Shown here piece after piece: positions 10,491 to 36,913 of a stretch of 64,000 nucleotides of DNA (position 1 is its first letter; each line of letters starts with the position of its first letter). Below the pieces are notes generated by a model, which saw only the letters and a program-made list of their open reading frames with translations, was not told the origin of the DNA and ran no database searches. This stretch comes from Cellulosimicrobium protaetiae (lineage in GTDB: Bacteria > Actinomycetota > Actinomycetes > Actinomycetales > Cellulomonadaceae): contig NZ_CP052757.1 of NCBI RefSeq assembly GCF_009708005.2, forward strand, positions 992,001-1,056,000, read 5' to 3'. The position numbers were made by a program, and so were the translations under genes.

Positions 10491-10617
10491 GGGGCCTCCT
10501 CGGGGCGACGGGCGGGGAGAGCGCCGGTGCTCGCCCGCCTGCGTCGCGGACGTCGCCGACGACGTCTGCCAGGTTACGGCGAACCCCGCCCGTACGCCGA
10601 ACAGGCGGCTCGCTCCG

Positions 10618-11190
10618 CGAGGTAGAACCCTGGTCTGCCGAGGTAGAACCCTGGTTGCGCGAGGTAGAACCCTGGTTGCGCGAGGTAGAACCGTGGTCGG
10701 CCGAGGTAGAACTCTGGTTCTTGTGCCCGACGGCGCGTGGCTGGGTGGGTGGTCGGGGTGGGTGGTGGTGCCGCGTCTACCATCCGCCGCTCGTTCCTCG
10801 CGGCTCCCGCCAGGCCCGCCACGACGCGGCACCACCACCCACCCCGACCGTCGTCGTCTCACCCTGGCCTTGGCTCGCCCTGGGCTGGCGCCGCGCGGGC
10901 GGCCTCGGGCGCGCGACCCGGCCGGCGCCGGAGTCGTGGCGCTCGGTGGCCCGACCGCGGCGGGTCACCGCCCGCCGGACATCGGGGAGCACGTGACGAA
11001 CGACCGCCGCGGGCGGCCGGTCGTCGCTGGGCACGACGGCGGTTCTACCTCGCGCGACCACAGTTCTACCTCGGCGGACCACAGTTCTACGTCGGGCGAC
11101 CAGGGTTCTACTTCGGCGGAACCGGGGTTCTACCTCGCGCGACCAGGGTTCTACTTCGGCGGGACGGGGTTCTTGCTCGCGGGGGCCACG
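10618..11190. repeat. Dispersed inverted-array repeat element, copy 1
   Basis: The left arm is five tandem 21-bp units (10618-10722) of consensus CGAGGTAGAACCNTGGT plus four variable bases. The right arm (about 11039-11190) is seven or more units of the same sequence in reverse orientation (GGTTCTACC), degrading toward the outside. Between them lies a 310-base core with a 27-bp perfect inverted repeat (10751-10777 with 10823-10849). The core is shared with copy 2 in opposite orientation, including the hairpin loop, but with 1-base indels that shift every frame, so the element looks noncoding. No transposase is present. It may be a nonautonomous mobile element or a structured RNA or DNA site. 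Confidence 0.8.
10751..10849. repeat. 27-bp-arm hairpin inside repeat element copy 1
   Basis: Arms 10751-10777 and 10823-10849 are exact reverse complements. The 45-base loop between them is itself conserved in copy 2. The stem is far longer than ordinary terminators in this window, apart from the one at 43530. Confidence 0.8.
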
Positions 11191-11223
11191 GTTCTGGGTC
11201 CGCGGGTCGGGTCTGCTTCGGGG

Positions 11224-30373: not shown

Positions 30374-30976
30374 TCAGTCGAACAGGGTGTCCATGTCCCA
30401 CGCGGGTTCCGCCTGCTTCGTGGCGGGCGCGGGCGACTGGCTCGGAGCGGTGGCCGTCGACGTCGGCGCGCCGGCTGGCACGCGGCCACCCCGTCGCGTC
30501 GGGTCGCCCAGCTCGGGCACGAGCGTCCCGTCGAGGTCGCCGCGCCCCGCGGCCCAGTCCTGGGCGGCGAGCCCGGCGAGCTGGTCGGCGCGCTCGTTGA
30601 ACGGGTCGCCGACGTGGCCGCGCACCCAGCGGAACCGGACGGGCCCGGCGCGCTCGGTGATGACACGGTCGATCGCCTGGACGAGCTCCAGGTTCTTGAC
30701 GGGCTGGCCGCCCGCGGTGCGCCACCCCTTGCGCTTCCACGCGACGACCCACTCGGACGCGCACTTGATCGCGTACTGCGAGTCGGACTCGATGAGCAGG
30801 GGCTCCGCGCCGGGGTGCGCGCGGACGGCCTGGAGCAGCGCGGTGAGCTCGGCGACCTGGTTGGTCCCGCTCACGGCGCCGCCGGAGTCGAACGTGCCGT
30901 CGTGGTTGATCCACGCCCACCCGATGGCGCCGCCCGGGTTGCTCAGGCACGAGCCGTCGGTGCTGACAGTGATCAC
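30374..30976 (-). CDS. rnhA: Ribonuclease HI with C-terminal extension
   Basis: 200 residues. It cleaves the RNA strand of RNA:DNA hybrids. All catalytic residues are present: Asp7 (STDGS), Glu43 (NQVAELTAL), Asp65 (IESDSQYAIK), His121 (RWVRGHVGDP) and Asp131 (NERADQLAGL). Residues 150-200 form a disordered Pro/Ala/Ser tail ending in an acidic motif (AWDMDTLFD), which could be a protein-docking peptide. Start GTG at 30976. Confidence 0.93.
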   Translation of the reverse strand: MITVSTDGSCLSNPGGAIGWAWINHDGTFDSGGAVSGTNQVAELTALLQAVRAHPGAEPLLIESDSQYAIKCASEWVVAWKRKGWRTAGGQPVKNLELVQAIDRVITERAGPVRFRWVRGHVGDPFNERADQLAGLAAQDWAAGRGDLDGTLVPELGDPTRRGGRVPAGAPTSTATAPSQSPAPATKQAEPAWDMDTLFD

Positions 30977-31169
30977 AGCGCTCCTCGATCACGGACGTCC
31001 CCGCCCGCCGGCTGCGGCGCGGGGAGGCGAATGCGTCGAGCCACATTGTCCCCCGGACCGGAGGGTCGTGGGACCACCCGTCCGCAGGCGACCGGTCGGG
31101 GTCGCCTCAGGGAGGAACCGGGGGGATACCCCATGGTGCGGGACGTGCACGCGGTCGAGGCTGGGACGC

Positions 31170-31901
31170 ATGGTCGCGTGGGTCGTGGAGCTGTGGGGAC
31201 AGGTCGAGGCGTGGCTGCTCGCGCTCGTCGACTCCGTGTGGGCGTTGCCGACGCTCTTCGCGACGACCGCGGGCGACGGGTTCTTCCCGCCGATCCCCGG
31301 CGAGACCGTGATCGTGATGCTCGCGGTGGGGGCGCAGTCCGGCGGGGGCGTGGCCTGGGGGCTCGTGCTGCTCGTCGCCGCGCTCGGTGCGTGGTGCGGC
31401 GACCAGCTCGCCTTCACGCTCGGGCGGGCGCTCGGCACGCGGGCGCTGCCGGCGCTGCGTGGCTCGCGCGGTCGACGGGCCGTCGCGTGGGCGACGCGGT
31501 CGCTCGACCGACGTGGTGCGTCCGTCGTCCTGGGTGCCCGGTTCGTTCCCGTCGGGCGGACGGCGGTCAACGTCACCGCGGGCGCCGTCGGGTTCTCGCG
31601 CCGCCGCTTCATGGCGCTCTCCGCCGTGGCCTCGGCGGCGTGGGCGACCTACTCGGTCCTCATCGGCACGCTCGCCGCGGCGTGGATCGGTGACAGCCCG
31701 CTCCTCGCCGTCGTCGTGGGTGTCGTCGGCGGGATCCTGCTCGGCGTCCTCGTCGACACCGTGGTCCGCCTCCGCGCGTCCCGCCGGGAGAGGACGGCGA
31801 CCGTCGCTGCTGCGCCGGCCCCGGCCGCGTCCCCGACGCCGGCCGTCGTCCCCACCGAGCAGGACGCCACCCTCGCCTCCTGCACCGGCCGGGCGAGCTA
31901 G
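31170..31901 (+). CDS. DedA-family membrane protein
   Basis: 243 residues. A DedA/VTT core with FPPIPGETVIVMLAVGA near residue 38, the RFVPVGRTAVNVTAGAVGFS re-entrant motif near 130, and several membrane helices. Relatives flip phospholipids or undecaprenyl phosphate and help with envelope homeostasis. The C-terminal 30 residues are a Pro/Ala/Thr tail. The last three codons and the TAG stop lie inside the first unit of repeat element copy 2, suggesting the element replaced the original gene end. Confidence 0.88.
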   Translation: MVAWVVELWGQVEAWLLALVDSVWALPTLFATTAGDGFFPPIPGETVIVMLAVGAQSGGGVAWGLVLLVAALGAWCGDQLAFTLGRALGTRALPALRGSRGRRAVAWATRSLDRRGASVVLGARFVPVGRTAVNVTAGAVGFSRRRFMALSAVASAAWATYSVLIGTLAAAWIGDSPLLAVVVGVVGGILLGVLVDTVVRLRASRRERTATVAAAPAPAASPTPAVVPTEQDATLASCTGRAS

Positions 31902-32360
31902 AACCCTGATCGCCCGAGGCAGAACCGCGGTCGCGCGAGGTAGAACCGTGGTTACCCGAGGTAGAACCGTGGTCGTGCCCGACGACGACCGGCCGCCCGC
32001 TGCGGTCGGTCGTCGCGTGCTTCCTGATGTCCGACGGCGGGCGGTGACCCGCTGCGGTCGGGCCACCGAGGGCCGCGGCTCCGGCGCCGGCCGGGTCGCG
32101 CGCCCCGAGGCCGCCCGCGGGCAGTCGCCGGAGGCGTGCACAGACCGGGGTGAGACGAAGCCGGTCGGGGTGGGTGGTGGTGCCGCGTCGTGGTCGGGCC
32201 TGGCGGGAGCCGCGAGGAACGAGCGGCGGATGGTAGACGCGGCACCACCACACACCCCGACCACCCCACCCAGCCACGCGCCGTCGGGCAAGAAGCAACC
32301 ACGGTTCTACCCCGGCCCACCAGGGTTCTACCTCGCGCGACCGCGGTTCTACCTCGGCGG
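31894..32360. repeat. Dispersed inverted-array repeat element, copy 2
   Basis: Reverse-oriented relative of the element at 10618. The left arm is four 21-bp units (31894-31977). The core (31978-32290) is alignable to copy 1 along its length. The right arm has three inverted units (about 32295-32360). The hairpin arms 32163-32189 and 32236-32262 have one mismatch, and the loop differs from copy 1 by one inserted base. It occupies the 518-base gap between convergent dedA and FKBP genes; no protein-coding gene is supported there. Confidence 0.8.
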
Positions 32361-32372
32361 GGCGGAGAGCAC

Positions 32373-32401
32373 GAGGGCCCCGGTCGACGACCGGGGCCCT
32401 C
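32373..32401 (-). terminator. Terminator of the FKBP gene
   Basis: A 12-bp or longer stem (GAGGGCCCCGGT with ACCGGGGCCCTC) around CGACG, 18 bases after the FKBP stop on the minus strand. Confidence 0.7.
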
Positions 32402-32419: not shown

Positions 32420-32800
32420 TCAGGACACGCCGAGGAGGTCGATGACGAAGATCAGCGTCTTGCCCGACAGGCGGTGGCCGCCGCCCGCGGGGCCGTAGGC
32501 GAGCTCGGGCGGCACGACGAGCTTGCGCCGCCCGCCGACCTTCATGCCGGGGATGCCCTGCTGCCAGCCCGCGATGAGGCTGCGCAGGGGGAAGTTGATC
32601 GACTGCCCGCGGTTCCACGAGGCGTCGAACTCCTCGCCGGTCTCGTACTCGACGCCGAGGTAGTGCACGTTCACGGTCGCGCCCGGCGTGGCCTCGGGGC
32701 CGTCGCCGACGGTGATGTCCTCGACGACGAGCTCGGTGGGCGCGGGGCCCTCCGGGGCGTCGACCTCGGGGCGGGACAGCTCGTTCTCTCCAGTGGTCAT
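32420..32800 (-). CDS. FKBP-type peptidyl-prolyl isomerase
   Basis: 126 residues. A single FKBP domain with VNVHYLGVEYETGEEFDASW, FPLRSLIAGWQQGIPGMKVG and VVPPELAYGPAG, all active-site landmarks. It is cytoplasmic with no signal and accelerates prolyl isomerisation during folding. The ATG at 32800 is favoured over an ATG seven codons upstream because family members start near here. Confidence 0.92.
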   Translation of the reverse strand: MTTGENELSRPEVDAPEGPAPTELVVEDITVGDGPEATPGATVNVHYLGVEYETGEEFDASWNRGQSINFPLRSLIAGWQQGIPGMKVGGRRKLVVPPELAYGPAGGGHRLSGKTLIFVIDLLGVS

Positions 32801-32945
32801 GCTCCCGATCCAACCACGCACCCGCGCCGCCGTCGTCCGGCGCGGCCTCGGACGCGGCCGTACGGAACGGGCGGTCGCGGGTCCGCGACGCCGCGACTTC
32901 GGTGCCGCGAAACACGGAGAGGCCGAAAATCGCCATCATGGAGGC

Positions 32946-34200: not shown

Positions 34201-35343
34201 ATGGACGCGACGCACGACGCGCAGGGCAGGCGCGCACCCGCCGCCCGTCGCTGGCTCGTGCGCGCGCTCGTGGCCGGTGGCGGCCTCGGGGTCGGGTTCG
34301 CACTCTCGGTCGCGACCGCGGGCGGTGCGTCCGCCGCGGACGACCCGCTCGGGCTCGGCAAGGCCCTGTCTCCCGTGACCTCGACGGTCCAGAACGTCGT
34401 CGACCCGGTCGTGCAGGAGATCGTGAAGCCGGTCGTGCGTGACGTCGTCGCCCCCGTCGTCCAGCCGGTCGCCCCGGTCGTCGAGAAGGTCGTGACCCCG
34501 GCCGCTCCCGTGGTCGAGGAGGTCGTGCGGCCTGTCGCCCCGGTGGTGGAGCAGGTGGTCGAGCCGGTCGCTCCCGTGGTCGAGCAGGTCGTGGCGCCGG
34601 TGGCGCCCGTCGTGCAGCCCGTGACCGACGCCGTCGCGCCCGTGACCACGCCCGTCCTCGACGCGGTCGTGCCGGCCGTGACGCCGGTCGTCGAGACGGT
34701 CGCACCCGTGGTGAACCCCGTCCTCGAGACCGTCTCGCCGGCGCTCGACCCGGTGACGCCCGTCCTGGAGGCGCTGGCCCCGGTCCTCGACGTCCTGGCA
34801 CCGATCACCGACCCGGTGCTCGGTCCCGTCACCGGGCCGCTCGCGCCGCTGGACCCGCTCGCGCCCGTGCTGCCCGAATCGCCCGGGACGGGCTCGGAGG
34901 CACCGGGTCCGTCCGTCCCCGGCAGCTCTGATCCGCCCGACCCCGTCCTCGGTGCTCCGACACCTTCGGCGCCGCCCTCCCCAGCCGACGGGCTGCGGCC
35001 CGCGCCACCGCCCGGTGCGGATCGCGCGGGCCCGCCGGCGTCCGTCGGTGCGTCGCGCTCGGGAGCCGACGGCGGGGTCACCCTCGCCGCGGTCGACGCG
35101 CCACCGGGTACGGTCGCGCCTGCGGGCGGTCCCGCAGCACCCGGCGGCATCCCCGCCGACGGCGGGCTCGGCACCACTCCCGCCCCCTCCGGCAGCGCGC
35201 AGCGCGCCGGTTCGGGCGGCGATCTCGCCGCGGTCGGCCACGGTGCCGACGCCCCCGCGCTCTCGTCCTGGACCGCCGTCGTCGACGACGCGCGGTCGAA
35301 GCACCCCTCGACGTTCTTCGAGGTCCCCGTCTCTCCTGCCTGA
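34201..35343 (+). CDS. Secreted Pro/Val-repeat protein
   Basis: 380 residues. The signal peptide ends near GGASA-AD (about 46). Residues 60-225 consist of degenerate short repeats built on APVVEQVVxPV, giving a regular hydrophobic face broken by prolines. Residues 225-350 are Pro/Gly/Ala/Ser low complexity. No Cys and no sortase motif are seen at the end (FFEVPVSPA). The gene precedes the chaplin-like surface protein by 86 bases, and both look like structural envelope proteins. Function unknown. Confidence 0.7.
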   Translation: MDATHDAQGRRAPAARRWLVRALVAGGGLGVGFALSVATAGGASAADDPLGLGKALSPVTSTVQNVVDPVVQEIVKPVVRDVVAPVVQPVAPVVEKVVTPAAPVVEEVVRPVAPVVEQVVEPVAPVVEQVVAPVAPVVQPVTDAVAPVTTPVLDAVVPAVTPVVETVAPVVNPVLETVSPALDPVTPVLEALAPVLDVLAPITDPVLGPVTGPLAPLDPLAPVLPESPGTGSEAPGPSVPGSSDPPDPVLGAPTPSAPPSPADGLRPAPPPGADRAGPPASVGASRSGADGGVTLAAVDAPPGTVAPAGGPAAPGGIPADGGLGTTPAPSGSAQRAGSGGDLAAVGHGADAPALSSWTAVVDDARSKHPSTFFEVPVSPA

Positions 35344-35428
35344 GGTGGTCCGCCGCTGCGCCCCGCGCGGCAGACGCGACCCGGCGCCGTCGTGCGCCAC
35401 CACCTTCTGAGCAGGAGAGAGAACGATC

Positions 35429-36913
35429 ATGCACACCTTCGTTCGGCGCGCGCTGCGCACAGCGCTCGTCACAGGCGGCCTCGTGGTCGTCGGGGCCGGA
35501 GCGGCCCACGCAGCCGAGGGCGACCTCCTCGGCGACCTCGGGCTGGACGTGTCGGTCGAGGCTCCGTTGAGCCAGGTGACCGAGGTCCTGCCCGACGTGT
35601 CGGTGGACGTGCCCGTGCACGTCCCCGTGACCGTGTCCGACGTCGCGGTGGGCGCCCTCGGCGACGCGACCGTGACCTCGACCCCCGCGCCGGCCGCCGA
35701 GCCGGCACCCGCTCCGGAGCCCGCTCCGGCGGGTCCGGCGGACGTGGACGTCGACATCCCGGTGACGATCCCCGTGGACGTGTCGGGTGTCGCCGTCGGC
35801 GTCCTGGGCGACGCCGCGGTGGAGCCGGCCGCTGACCCGGAGCCCGCACCAGCACCAGCCCCCGCCCCCGAGCCCGCCCCGGCGGACGCGGCGGACGTGG
35901 ACGTCGACGTGCCGGTGACGGTCCCCGTGGACGTGTCCGGTGTCGCGGTGGGCGTCCTGGGTGACGCGGCGGTCACGCCGGCTCAGGCGGCTCAGGCCGC
36001 TCCGGCGGTTCCGGCCGGCGGCACCGAGGACGGTGCGGCGGGGTCCGGCTCGGACGTGGACGTCGACGTGCCGGTGACCATCCCCGTGGACGTCTCGGGT
36101 GTCGCGGTCGGCGTCGGTGGTGACGCGACGGTCGGCGGTGGCGCCGGTGCGGGCTCCGGCGACGGGGCCGGCTCCGACGACGTGTCCGACGGCTCGGGCC
36201 TGCTCGACGGCGTCCTGGGCGACGGCGGGCTCGTCGACGACCTGCTCGGCGACGGTCTCCTGGGTGACGGTGTGCTCGGCGGGGACGACGACCTCCTCGA
36301 CGGAGTCCTCGGCGAGGACGGCCTCGTGGACGACCTGCTCGGCGGTGGTACGTCGAGCGACGGTCTGCTGGACGGCGCGCTCGGCGACGACGGCCTGCTC
36401 GACGGAGTTCTCGGGGACGACGGCGTGCTCGGCGCGCTGCCCGACCTCGACGTCGACCTGCCGGTGACGGTCCCCGTCACGGTCTGCGGCGTGGGTGTCG
36501 GTCTGCTGGGCGACGCCTCGGCGGCGTGCCCGACGGCCGCCGTCGTGCCGACGGACCCGACGGACCCGACGGACCCGACGGACCCCACCGACCCGACGGA
36601 CCCGACGGACCCGACGGACCCGACGGACCCGACGGGCCCTGTTGACCCGGGGACCTCGGACGGCACGGACGGCACCGTGACCCGTGTGCTGAACCCGGTC
36701 ACCGGGAACGGTGCGACGGCCGCGACCGGCGGTTCGACCGTCATGGCGTCGGCCCCGACGGCCCTCGCCACCACCGGTGCGGGCGGCGACCTCGGGCTGC
36801 TCGTGATGGCCGGGCTGCTCACGCTCGTCGGCCTGTCGCTCCAGCGCTTCCGCCGGAAGTCCTGGGTCGCGGACCCTGAGGCCTACACCTCGGTCTTCAC
36901 CGAGCGGAGCTGA
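35429..36913 (+). CDS. Chaplin-like repeat surface protein with LAXTG sorting signal
   Basis: 494 residues with a signal peptide (about 1-29). Five copies of a chaplin-like motif of the form VPVxVPVxVxxVAVGxLGDA are at roughly 59-82, 106-131, 156-181, 209-234 and 341-367; only the last carries the two chaplin-type Cys (353, 367). Between them lie Pro/Ala linkers and a Leu/Gly/Asp repeat (about 257-338, LLDGVLGDDG type). Nine TDP repeats occupy 375-401. The C-terminus has LATTG (446-450), a hydrophobic span and RFRRK, a class E sortase substrate pattern, with an unusual 17-residue tail. It is likely anchored to the wall and may self-assemble. Confidence 0.8.
   Translation: MHTFVRRALRTALVTGGLVVVGAGAAHAAEGDLLGDLGLDVSVEAPLSQVTEVLPDVSVDVPVHVPVTVSDVAVGALGDATVTSTPAPAAEPAPAPEPAPAGPADVDVDIPVTIPVDVSGVAVGVLGDAAVEPAADPEPAPAPAPAPEPAPADAADVDVDVPVTVPVDVSGVAVGVLGDAAVTPAQAAQAAPAVPAGGTEDGAAGSGSDVDVDVPVTIPVDVSGVAVGVGGDATVGGGAGAGSGDGAGSDDVSDGSGLLDGVLGDGGLVDDLLGDGLLGDGVLGGDDDLLDGVLGEDGLVDDLLGGGTSSDGLLDGALGDDGLLDGVLGDDGVLGALPDLDVDLPVTVPVTVCGVGVGLLGDASAACPTAAVVPTDPTDPTDPTDPTDPTDPTDPTDPTDPTGPVDPGTSDGTDGTVTRVLNPVTGNGATAATGGSTVMASAPTALATTGAGGDLGLLVMAGLLTLVGLSLQRFRRKSWVADPEAYTSVFTERS
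36551..36631 (+). repeat. Nine tandem 9-bp repeats encoding Thr-Asp-Pro
   Basis: Units of ACGGACCCG (one is ACCGACCCG, another ends in CCC) lie in frame within the chaplin-like gene. They encode a wall-spanning type linker just before the sorting signal. Copy number is expected to vary between strains. Confidence 0.9.

What the first reader, a model, noticed from the sequence alone, without database searches (positions are those of the whole stretch)
10618..11190. Undescribed dispersed element with inverted arrays of 21-bp units
Two copies (10618-11190 and 31894-32360, opposite orientation) share outer arrays of 21-bp units built on CGAGGTAGAACC, inward-facing and in opposite orientation at the two ends, around a roughly 310-base conserved core. 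No transposase or other gene is present. The arms differ in unit number (5 and 7+ versus 4 and 3), as if they expand and contract. I know of no named family with this structure. It could be a nonautonomous mobile element, a recombination site or an RNA gene.
Basis: seen in the sequence. Interest (0 to 1): 0.8.

Follow-up and report, generated by a model that had tools for sequence, protein, structure and literature searches.

The report
Nested hairpin repeats at gene ends
Soil bacteria of the genus Cellulosimicrobium carry dozens of copies of a gene-free DNA element made of short repeat units around very stable hairpins, mostly parked just after the ends of genes; the main hairpin keeps nearly the same loop from copy to copy while its long stem changes sequence yet stays paired, so it may be a new kind of structured gene-end element.

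Summary
The two window copies belong to a dispersed, gene-free family in Cellulosimicrobium: 35 copies with the same hairpin arms were mapped in this genome, and the 21-bp unit has 340 matches against 0 for its reversed control. The element is a mosaic: inward-facing unit arrays flank a roughly 100-nt hairpin (h1) and a middle of variable length. Arrays and h1 also occur apart: arrays without a core, and h1 without units, in the genus and in other genera. Mapped clusters sit at gene 3' ends (26 convergent, 35 tandem, 3 divergent of 69); in 17 of 69 a gene ends on the TAG inside a unit. h1 is the striking part: a nearly fixed asymmetric loop between helices of free sequence that stay paired (26 of 30 pairs changed on both sides, 0 of 500 shuffles). 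Rfam has no match at curated scores. No Y1 (RAYT-type) transposase matched in 17 genus genomes. An insertion sequence landed in units in 4 of 4 copies. Best reading: a NIME/BIME-like mosaic intergenic repeat, probably a two-way 3'-end structure. Function and spreading mechanism are inferred, not shown.

The parts
10618..10719 (+). left array of copy 1: 5 units of 21 bp, CGAGGTAGAACCNTGGTNNNN
10720..10750 (+). foot: conserved link of about 33 nt between left array and hairpin
   Evidence: 30-36 nt in 33 of 35 copies; 53 and 9 nt in the other two
10751..10849 (+). h1 hairpin: 27-bp arms 10751-10777 and 10823-10849 (100% complementary) around a 45-nt conserved loop with a small inner stem
10850..10903 (+). 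tail: conserved stretch of about 55 nt beginning GTCGTCGTCTCACCCTGG
10904..11035 (+). rest of the middle of this copy; the middle as a whole is 86% identical to that of copy 2 and different or longer in many other copies
11036..11195 (-). right array of copy 1: 6 inverted units to 11158, degenerate units to about 11195
31894..31977 (+). array of copy 2, 4 units; TAG at 31899-31901 inside the first unit is the stop codon of the upstream ORF (30387-31901)
32163..32262 (-). h1 hairpin of copy 2 (27-nt arms, 96% complementary)
32298..32358 (-). inverted array of copy 2, 3 units

Best explanation
The finding is a composite, non-coding mosaic intergenic repeat that works like the neisserial NIMEs and enterobacterial BIMEs. 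Shown: it is built from separable repeat families, 21-bp units in short tandem arrays that face inward and the h1 hairpin (h2/h3-type hairpins in the middle are my reading of the sequences). Mapped clusters sit mostly at gene 3' ends; the composite is shared at some sites between species, absent at others, and its core can be missing where the inverted arrays remain. Shown: h1 has a conserved asymmetric loop and two helices of free sequence that stay paired. Inferred: the giant hairpin near the usual terminator distance stops or insulates transcription from both sides and shields 3' ends. Inferred: h1 arms change in pairs through template switching during replication plus selection for the structure. 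Inferred: the composite spreads by recombination or an unknown enzyme that uses the units, with native stop codons of the type CGAGSTAG or solitary units as landing sites.
For: 35 h1-bearing composites in this genome, 32 of 35 with recognisable units on both sides. Arrays without h1, including back-to-back palindromes. h1 in 17 of 17 genus genomes, including two (G003, G014) with no unit match. Location: of 69 clusters 35 tandem, 26 convergent, 3 divergent, 3 inside a called gene, 2 unresolved; 3 of 64 divergent against 15 of 63 gene gaps in the window, p = 4e-5. A gene ends exactly on the unit's TAG in 17 of 69 clusters, 18 gene ends, all 18 TAG with an open coding frame before it; at the site of copy 2, 10 of 15 species without the composite already have the TAG (by eye). 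Nine of the 12 h1 copies read outside the genus have the model match 25-77 nt from a stop codon. Covariation: 26 of 30 pairs changed on both sides, 114 cells against 30 shuffled, 0 of 500; 27 of 29 pairs in 16 copies from 15 genomes outside the genus (alignment fitted to the model). Orthologous loops differ at 0-4 of 37 positions while arms show up to 5 two-sided changes in 20. The whole element folds at z = -14.3. Core missing at site 1057978.
Against: No transcription or termination data. h1 strand relative to tandem genes is not fixed (15 same, 25 opposite; p = 0.15), although T enrichment and the TCGTC tail lie on one side only, which fits a one-way terminator poorly. One-sided arm changes also occur at orthologous sites, up to 4 in 20. 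No enzyme was linked. The 3'-end bias could reflect only that promoters do not tolerate insertions.
Confidence: 0.58

Rival explanations
1. A nonautonomous DNA transposon (MITE): the inward arrays at both ends are multiple transposase-binding sites, as at the ends of Tn7-, Mu- or Tn402-type elements (recalled), and the enzyme is supplied in trans or has been lost.
For: Inverted arrays at both ends, dispersed copies, sites with and without the element; unit matches per genus genome range from 0 to 343.
Against: No target-site duplication recognised by eye at the sites of the two window copies (inconclusive); unit numbers per side vary widely, up to 10 on one side; arrays occur without core and solo; the longest middle mapped is 628 bp, too short for a usual transposase gene. 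A genome-wide hunt for an enzyme other than Y1 was not made.
Confidence: 0.2
2. h1 is a structured RNA (cis-acting 3' UTR motif or small RNA) that is carried along by the repeat.
For: Strong covariation of both helices around a conserved loop; loops conserved at orthologous sites; on the GTGGCGGG strand wobble pairs exceed A-C pairs, 24 to 10 (p = 0.024; related copies).
Against: Wobble-type one-sided changes are rare: in A1 2 of 547 cells, while 23 are unpaired; orientation to tandem genes not fixed; the neighbouring genes of 12 loci outside the genus differ (by eye, no family search made); nothing at Rfam's scores.
Confidence: 0.17
3. A REP/RAYT (REPIN) family mobilised by a Y1 tyrosine transposase.
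For: Dispersed hairpins at 3' ends, inverted arrangements; CGTC within 15 nt on the 3' side of h1 in 20 of 40 copies.
Against: 0 of 17 genus genomes have a Y1_Tnp match, while 5 of 14 control genomes do (two of the 17 genomes are 75 and 83% complete); stems of 19-34 bp in 40 of 43 arms and a loop near 45 nt lie outside the published REP sizes (PMC3733652, passages).
Confidence: 0.03

Closest known systems
Neisserial intergenic mosaic elements (NIME): 20-bp dRS3 repeats around RS elements (PMC3898611, passages read)
   Same: Short units of about 20 bp bracket variable non-coding modules in intergenic arrays of a few hundred bp; hundreds of units per genome; units serve as landing sites for another element (a phage there, an insertion sequence here).
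   Different: dRS3 has conserved 6-bp inverted ends of its own; the unit here is directional and stands in tandem arrays that face inward. No covarying h1-like hairpin is mentioned in the passages read. Different sequence and phylum.
REP/BIME and GTAG- or CGTC-tagged REPs (PMC3733652, abstract and passages read)
   Same: Dispersed palindromes, mostly between convergent and same-direction genes and downstream of genes, often in inverted pairs; targets for insertion sequences (PMC1525189, passages read).
   Different: REP stems are 5-13 bp and loops 2-20 bp; h1 has stems of 19-34 bp in 40 of 43 arms and a loop near 45 nt. In h1 the loop is conserved and the arms free. No Y1 transposase match in the genus.
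Template-switch maintained hairpins (PMC8794818, abstract and opening read)
   Same: Paired changes in both arms of a stem with few wobble intermediates, as seen in h1 arms.
   Different: That work treats RNA genes; here it would act on dispersed intergenic copies. Not tested here.

Membership tests
REP/RAYT (REPIN) | Y1 tyrosine transposase (PF01797) in the genome | tested here: not met
   0 of 17 genus genomes; control rings in 5 of 14 named genomes
REP/RAYT (REPIN) | GTAG or CGTC unpaired tag at one end | tested here: inconclusive
   CGTC within 15 nt on the 3' side of h1 in 20 of 40 copies against 5 of 40 on the other side; GTAG not scored
REP/RAYT (REPIN) | stem 5-13 bp, loop 2-20 bp (PMC3733652) | tested here: not met
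   arms 19-34 bp in 40 of 43, three shorter (5, 5 and 10); loop about 45 nt
NIME | about 20-bp repeats flanking RS-type modules in intergenic arrays | tested here: met
NIME | dRS3 consensus ATTCCC(N8)GGGAAT | tested here: not met
   the unit read is CGAGGTAGAACCNTGGTNNNN
MITE / nonautonomous transposon | inverted ends plus target-site duplication | tested here: inconclusive
   ends inverted; no duplication recognised by eye at the sites without the composite
MITE / nonautonomous transposon | parent transposase with the same ends | not tested
   only Y1 was searched genus-wide; the IS has different ends
Rfam RNA families | match at a curated score | tested here: not met
   0 matches in the window; lax search of 10600-11210 gives three microRNA-hairpin matches far below cut-off
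attC / integron-type folded recombination site | integron integrase and R/L core sites | not tested
   no search made

The most novel reading that the evidence does not exclude
h1 is a new class of structured nucleic-acid motif in Actinomycetota: a nearly fixed asymmetric internal loop (CTACCATCCG against CTCCCGCCAGRCCCRCCAC) between two helices whose sequence is unconstrained except for pairing and a G-rich 5' arm. A host protein or enzyme recognises it as folded DNA or RNA at gene ends, and it settles or survives in terminator hairpins, with arms rewritten by template switching.
Probability: 0.3. Interest if true: 0.82.

Novelty: new variant of a known kind. Interest (0 to 1): 0.6.

Why it matters
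From the passages read, such repeats are described mainly from Proteobacteria, where phages, insertion sequences and for some families RAYT enzymes are tied to them. Here is a dense actinobacterial system with no Y1 transposase match in the genus. It offers natural replicates, at matched sites across up to 17 species, for testing how long stems are kept paired: by selection, or by template switching that copies one arm onto the other. If h1 is bound by a protein or ends transcription both ways, it would be a portable gene-end part for high-GC bacteria and a structured motif that Rfam does not hold.

Tried and rejected
REP/RAYT origin: rejected, no Y1 match in 17 of 17 genus genomes. Known RNA family: nothing at curated scores; lax hits are microRNA hairpins far below cut-off. 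Plasmid, phage or viral carrier: no match. A second insertion sequence in the arrays, suspected from repeated spacings in other species: the 1188 spacing is the same host gene between arrays in two loci (L066, L093), and the spacings of 1222 and 1331 in L074 span coding frames that I read as host genes (no family search made). h1 arms copied from the insertion target: could not be tested; the h1-free sites at B that are short (G003, G007) lack the whole hairpin. h1 inserted into existing terminators: at site A stems exist with and without the loop, but loss is as likely as gain. A-C against G-T counts to choose the RNA strand: 24 to 10, weak, copies related. Strand relative to genes: not fixed. 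Wider range with the model: 3 of 393 class genomes including this one, but only 10 candidates per genome were scored, so this underestimates. Papers: listings gave nothing on such an element (one search listed 15 of 4,400; one search found 0).

Dropped rows: the 5 of 69 clusters inside called genes or unresolved were left out of the divergent test; 18 of 106 h1 copies were skipped in the orientation count. Two listed rows (1006610 and 1049427, the latter counted as divergent) are probably chance loop matches, since model R1 did not find them. Three of the 43 'noncanonical' arms are canonical arms with a base change (L018, L023, L082), and several others are orthologues of each other, so 43 is not 43 independent cases. 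The places printed were cut short by the tools, so not every cluster was mapped.

Full report
CHECK. The two window copies are as described. Copy 1 has 5 units of 21 bp, a core of about 320 bp and 6-7 inverted units; copy 2 has 4 and 3. The pattern CGAGGTAGAACCNTGGT with at most 1 mismatch occurs 340 times in the 4.78-Mb genome, its reversal 0 times. The whole element gives 213 BLAST pieces, its hairpin 108 pieces, 35 of them at 91-100% over most of the query.

WHERE. The window lies in G000, positions 992001-1056000. A tandem-unit pattern scanned over one genome per GTDB species hit 43 stretches, 43 of 43 titled Cellulosimicrobium; 0 in viral contigs. In 99 related genomes 21 have a unit match: 15 of 17 genus genomes, with 2 to 343 matches; one genome of another genus of the family (G026) with 21; five others with 1 each. 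Two genus genomes (G003, G014) have none.

ANATOMY. I mapped 64 merged stretches of this genome; the listings of places were capped, so this is not every cluster. Thirty-five copies carry the same hairpin arms. From the array inward they share a foot of about 33 nt (30-36 nt in 33 of 35), the hairpin h1 of about 100 nt and a tail of about 55 nt. The middle between hairpin and inverted array then varies from 56 to 628 bp in the 32 of 35 copies with recognisable units on both sides. At site 1148537 three species (G000, G004, G016) show a long middle with further hairpin-like modules, and three (G005, G006, G008) shortened ones; the module names h2 and h3 are my reading of the sequences. Arrays also occur alone, or back to back without any core.

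GENE ENDS. Of 69 clusters, 35 lie between same-direction genes, 26 between convergent genes, 3 between divergent genes, 3 inside a called gene and 2 could not be called (genes were called by my own codon-usage script). Three of 64 divergent against 15 of 63 in the window gives p = 4e-5. In 17 of 69 clusters a gene ends exactly at the TAG within an outer unit; the 18 gene ends concerned were checked, 18 of 18 being TAG with 59 open, coding-like codons before it. TAG is used by 47 of 206 strong reading frames in these stretches. At the site of copy 2, 15 of 15 other species lack the composite. Ten of the 15 have the gene's TAG; in G005, G006, G008, G011 and G016 it opens one unit-like stretch (by eye), G012 has a small array of a variant unit, and G003 an h1 hairpin with other arms. 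At the site of copy 1, 5 of 14 other species (G005, G006, G008, G011, G016) have the composite, two (G002, G010) only bare inverted arrays, G015 a different h1 with unit remnants, and G009 another hairpin; the remaining five show nothing recognisable or other sequence.

CORE LOSS. At 1057978 this genome has a bare >><< palindrome, while C. cellulans MP1 (L077) and G010 (L214) carry the composite in the same place. G010 is the more distant by flank identity (89-92% against 95%), so loss of the core here is the simpler reading; no species tree was built. Array size differs at orthologous sites (265022, 859082).

THE h1 HAIRPIN. Copies with quite different arms share the loop TACCATCCG-[stem]-TCGTTCCTC-[stem]-CTCCCGCCAGRCCCRCCAC. 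In 19 aligned copies (A1) 26 of 30 pairs have a change on both sides, 114 cells against 30 in shuffles, 0 of 500 shuffles reaching it; 95.8% of cells pair; 2 of 547 cells are one-sided changes and 23 are unpaired. The covariance model R1 finds h1 in 31 of 99 related genomes: 17 of 17 in the genus (12 to at least 42 copies; the tool scored at most 42) and 14 outside it, four of those (G025, G042, G049, G088) with 13-15 copies and several with single, some of them weak, hits. In the class sample 3 of 393 genomes match, this one included, with only 10 candidates scored per genome. Sixteen copies from 15 genomes outside the genus show 27 of 29 pairs changed on both sides (alignment fitted to the model, so it leans that way); twelve of them keep most of the loop, the four weakest (L233-L236) only part of it. 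For three hairpins at two orthologous sites, loops differ at 0-4 of 37 positions between species, while arms show up to 5 two-sided and up to 4 one-sided changes in 20. The 5' arm is richer in G than C in 43 of 43 arms (668 G, 255 C); because the arms are inverted repeats this holds on both strands. TCGTC lies within 15 nt of the hairpin on one side in 14 of 40 copies and on the other in 0 of 40. Outside the genus 12 loci were read: the neighbouring genes differ by eye, 9 of 12 have the model match (loop plus 24-bp arms) 25-77 nt from a stop codon, 2 of 12 fall inside a called frame and 1 is farther away.

MECHANISM. In A1 wobble-type changes are scarcer than plain mismatches, which fits arms corrected from each other at the DNA level; template switching is a published route to such paired changes (PMC8794818, abstract). 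Against that, over 56 unique arms G-T mismatches number 10 and A-C 24, a mild excess that would suit an RNA from the other strand. Selection on the structure would also give paired changes, and the near-fixed loop at orthologous sites argues for selection on the loop. The site after the stop codon and the fold of the whole element (-415 kcal/mol, z = -14.3) suggest 3'-end structures that act from both sides; the unfixed strand of h1 relative to tandem genes (15 same, 25 opposite) does not favour a one-way terminator. A paper on clusters of hairpins as terminators (PMC8355165) was seen only as title and abstract start. None of this was tested by expression.

MOBILITY. No Y1 transposase match in 17 of 17 genus genomes. 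An insertion sequence of 1302 bp, with HTH domains above and an rve domain just below Pfam's cut-off (IS30-family by recall), has 4 copies in this genome, identical over the 1281 bases compared. 4 of 4 lie inside a unit, one of them degenerate, within GAACC, with 4-bp duplications AACC three times and GTTC once. The unit is thus a preferred landing site, as REPs are for other insertion sequences (PMC1525189, passages). This IS does not share its ends with the arrays, so it is a user, not the shown mover, of the element.

VERDICT. A real composite repeat, rich in one genus and undescribed as far as my searches reach; a new variant of mosaic intergenic repeats. Its hairpin is the part most worth following.

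Noticed in passing
G000:C1 641099, 1111888, 1604478, 2288721 (L317, L316, L314, L309): Four copies of a 1302-bp insertion sequence (identical over the 1281 bases compared), each inserted inside a 21-bp unit with a 4-bp duplication.
   Followed up: yes
32373-32401: A perfect 14-bp inverted repeat just beyond copy 2, next to the 3' end of the minus-strand gene 32420-32821; a like repeat stands at the orthologous site in 8 of 15 species without the composite (by eye), and it looks like that gene's own terminator.
   Followed up: partly
L272-L293 site B; L126 4132721-4133245: Other hairpins with different ends (such as CCGANCACGA...TCGTGCTCGG, and GAGATGCG...CGCATCTC) whose inner arms also vary between species while staying paired (by eye).
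   Followed up: partly
10618-10719, 31894-31977: The unit is 21 bp long, so successive units put a TAG in the same reading frame as the first: an array that starts on a gene's stop codon supplies several in-frame stop codons in a row. It is also two turns of the DNA helix.
   Followed up: no
34387-36639: Long stretch of tandem repeats with periods of 9-153 bp, perhaps a repetitive coding region.
   Followed up: no
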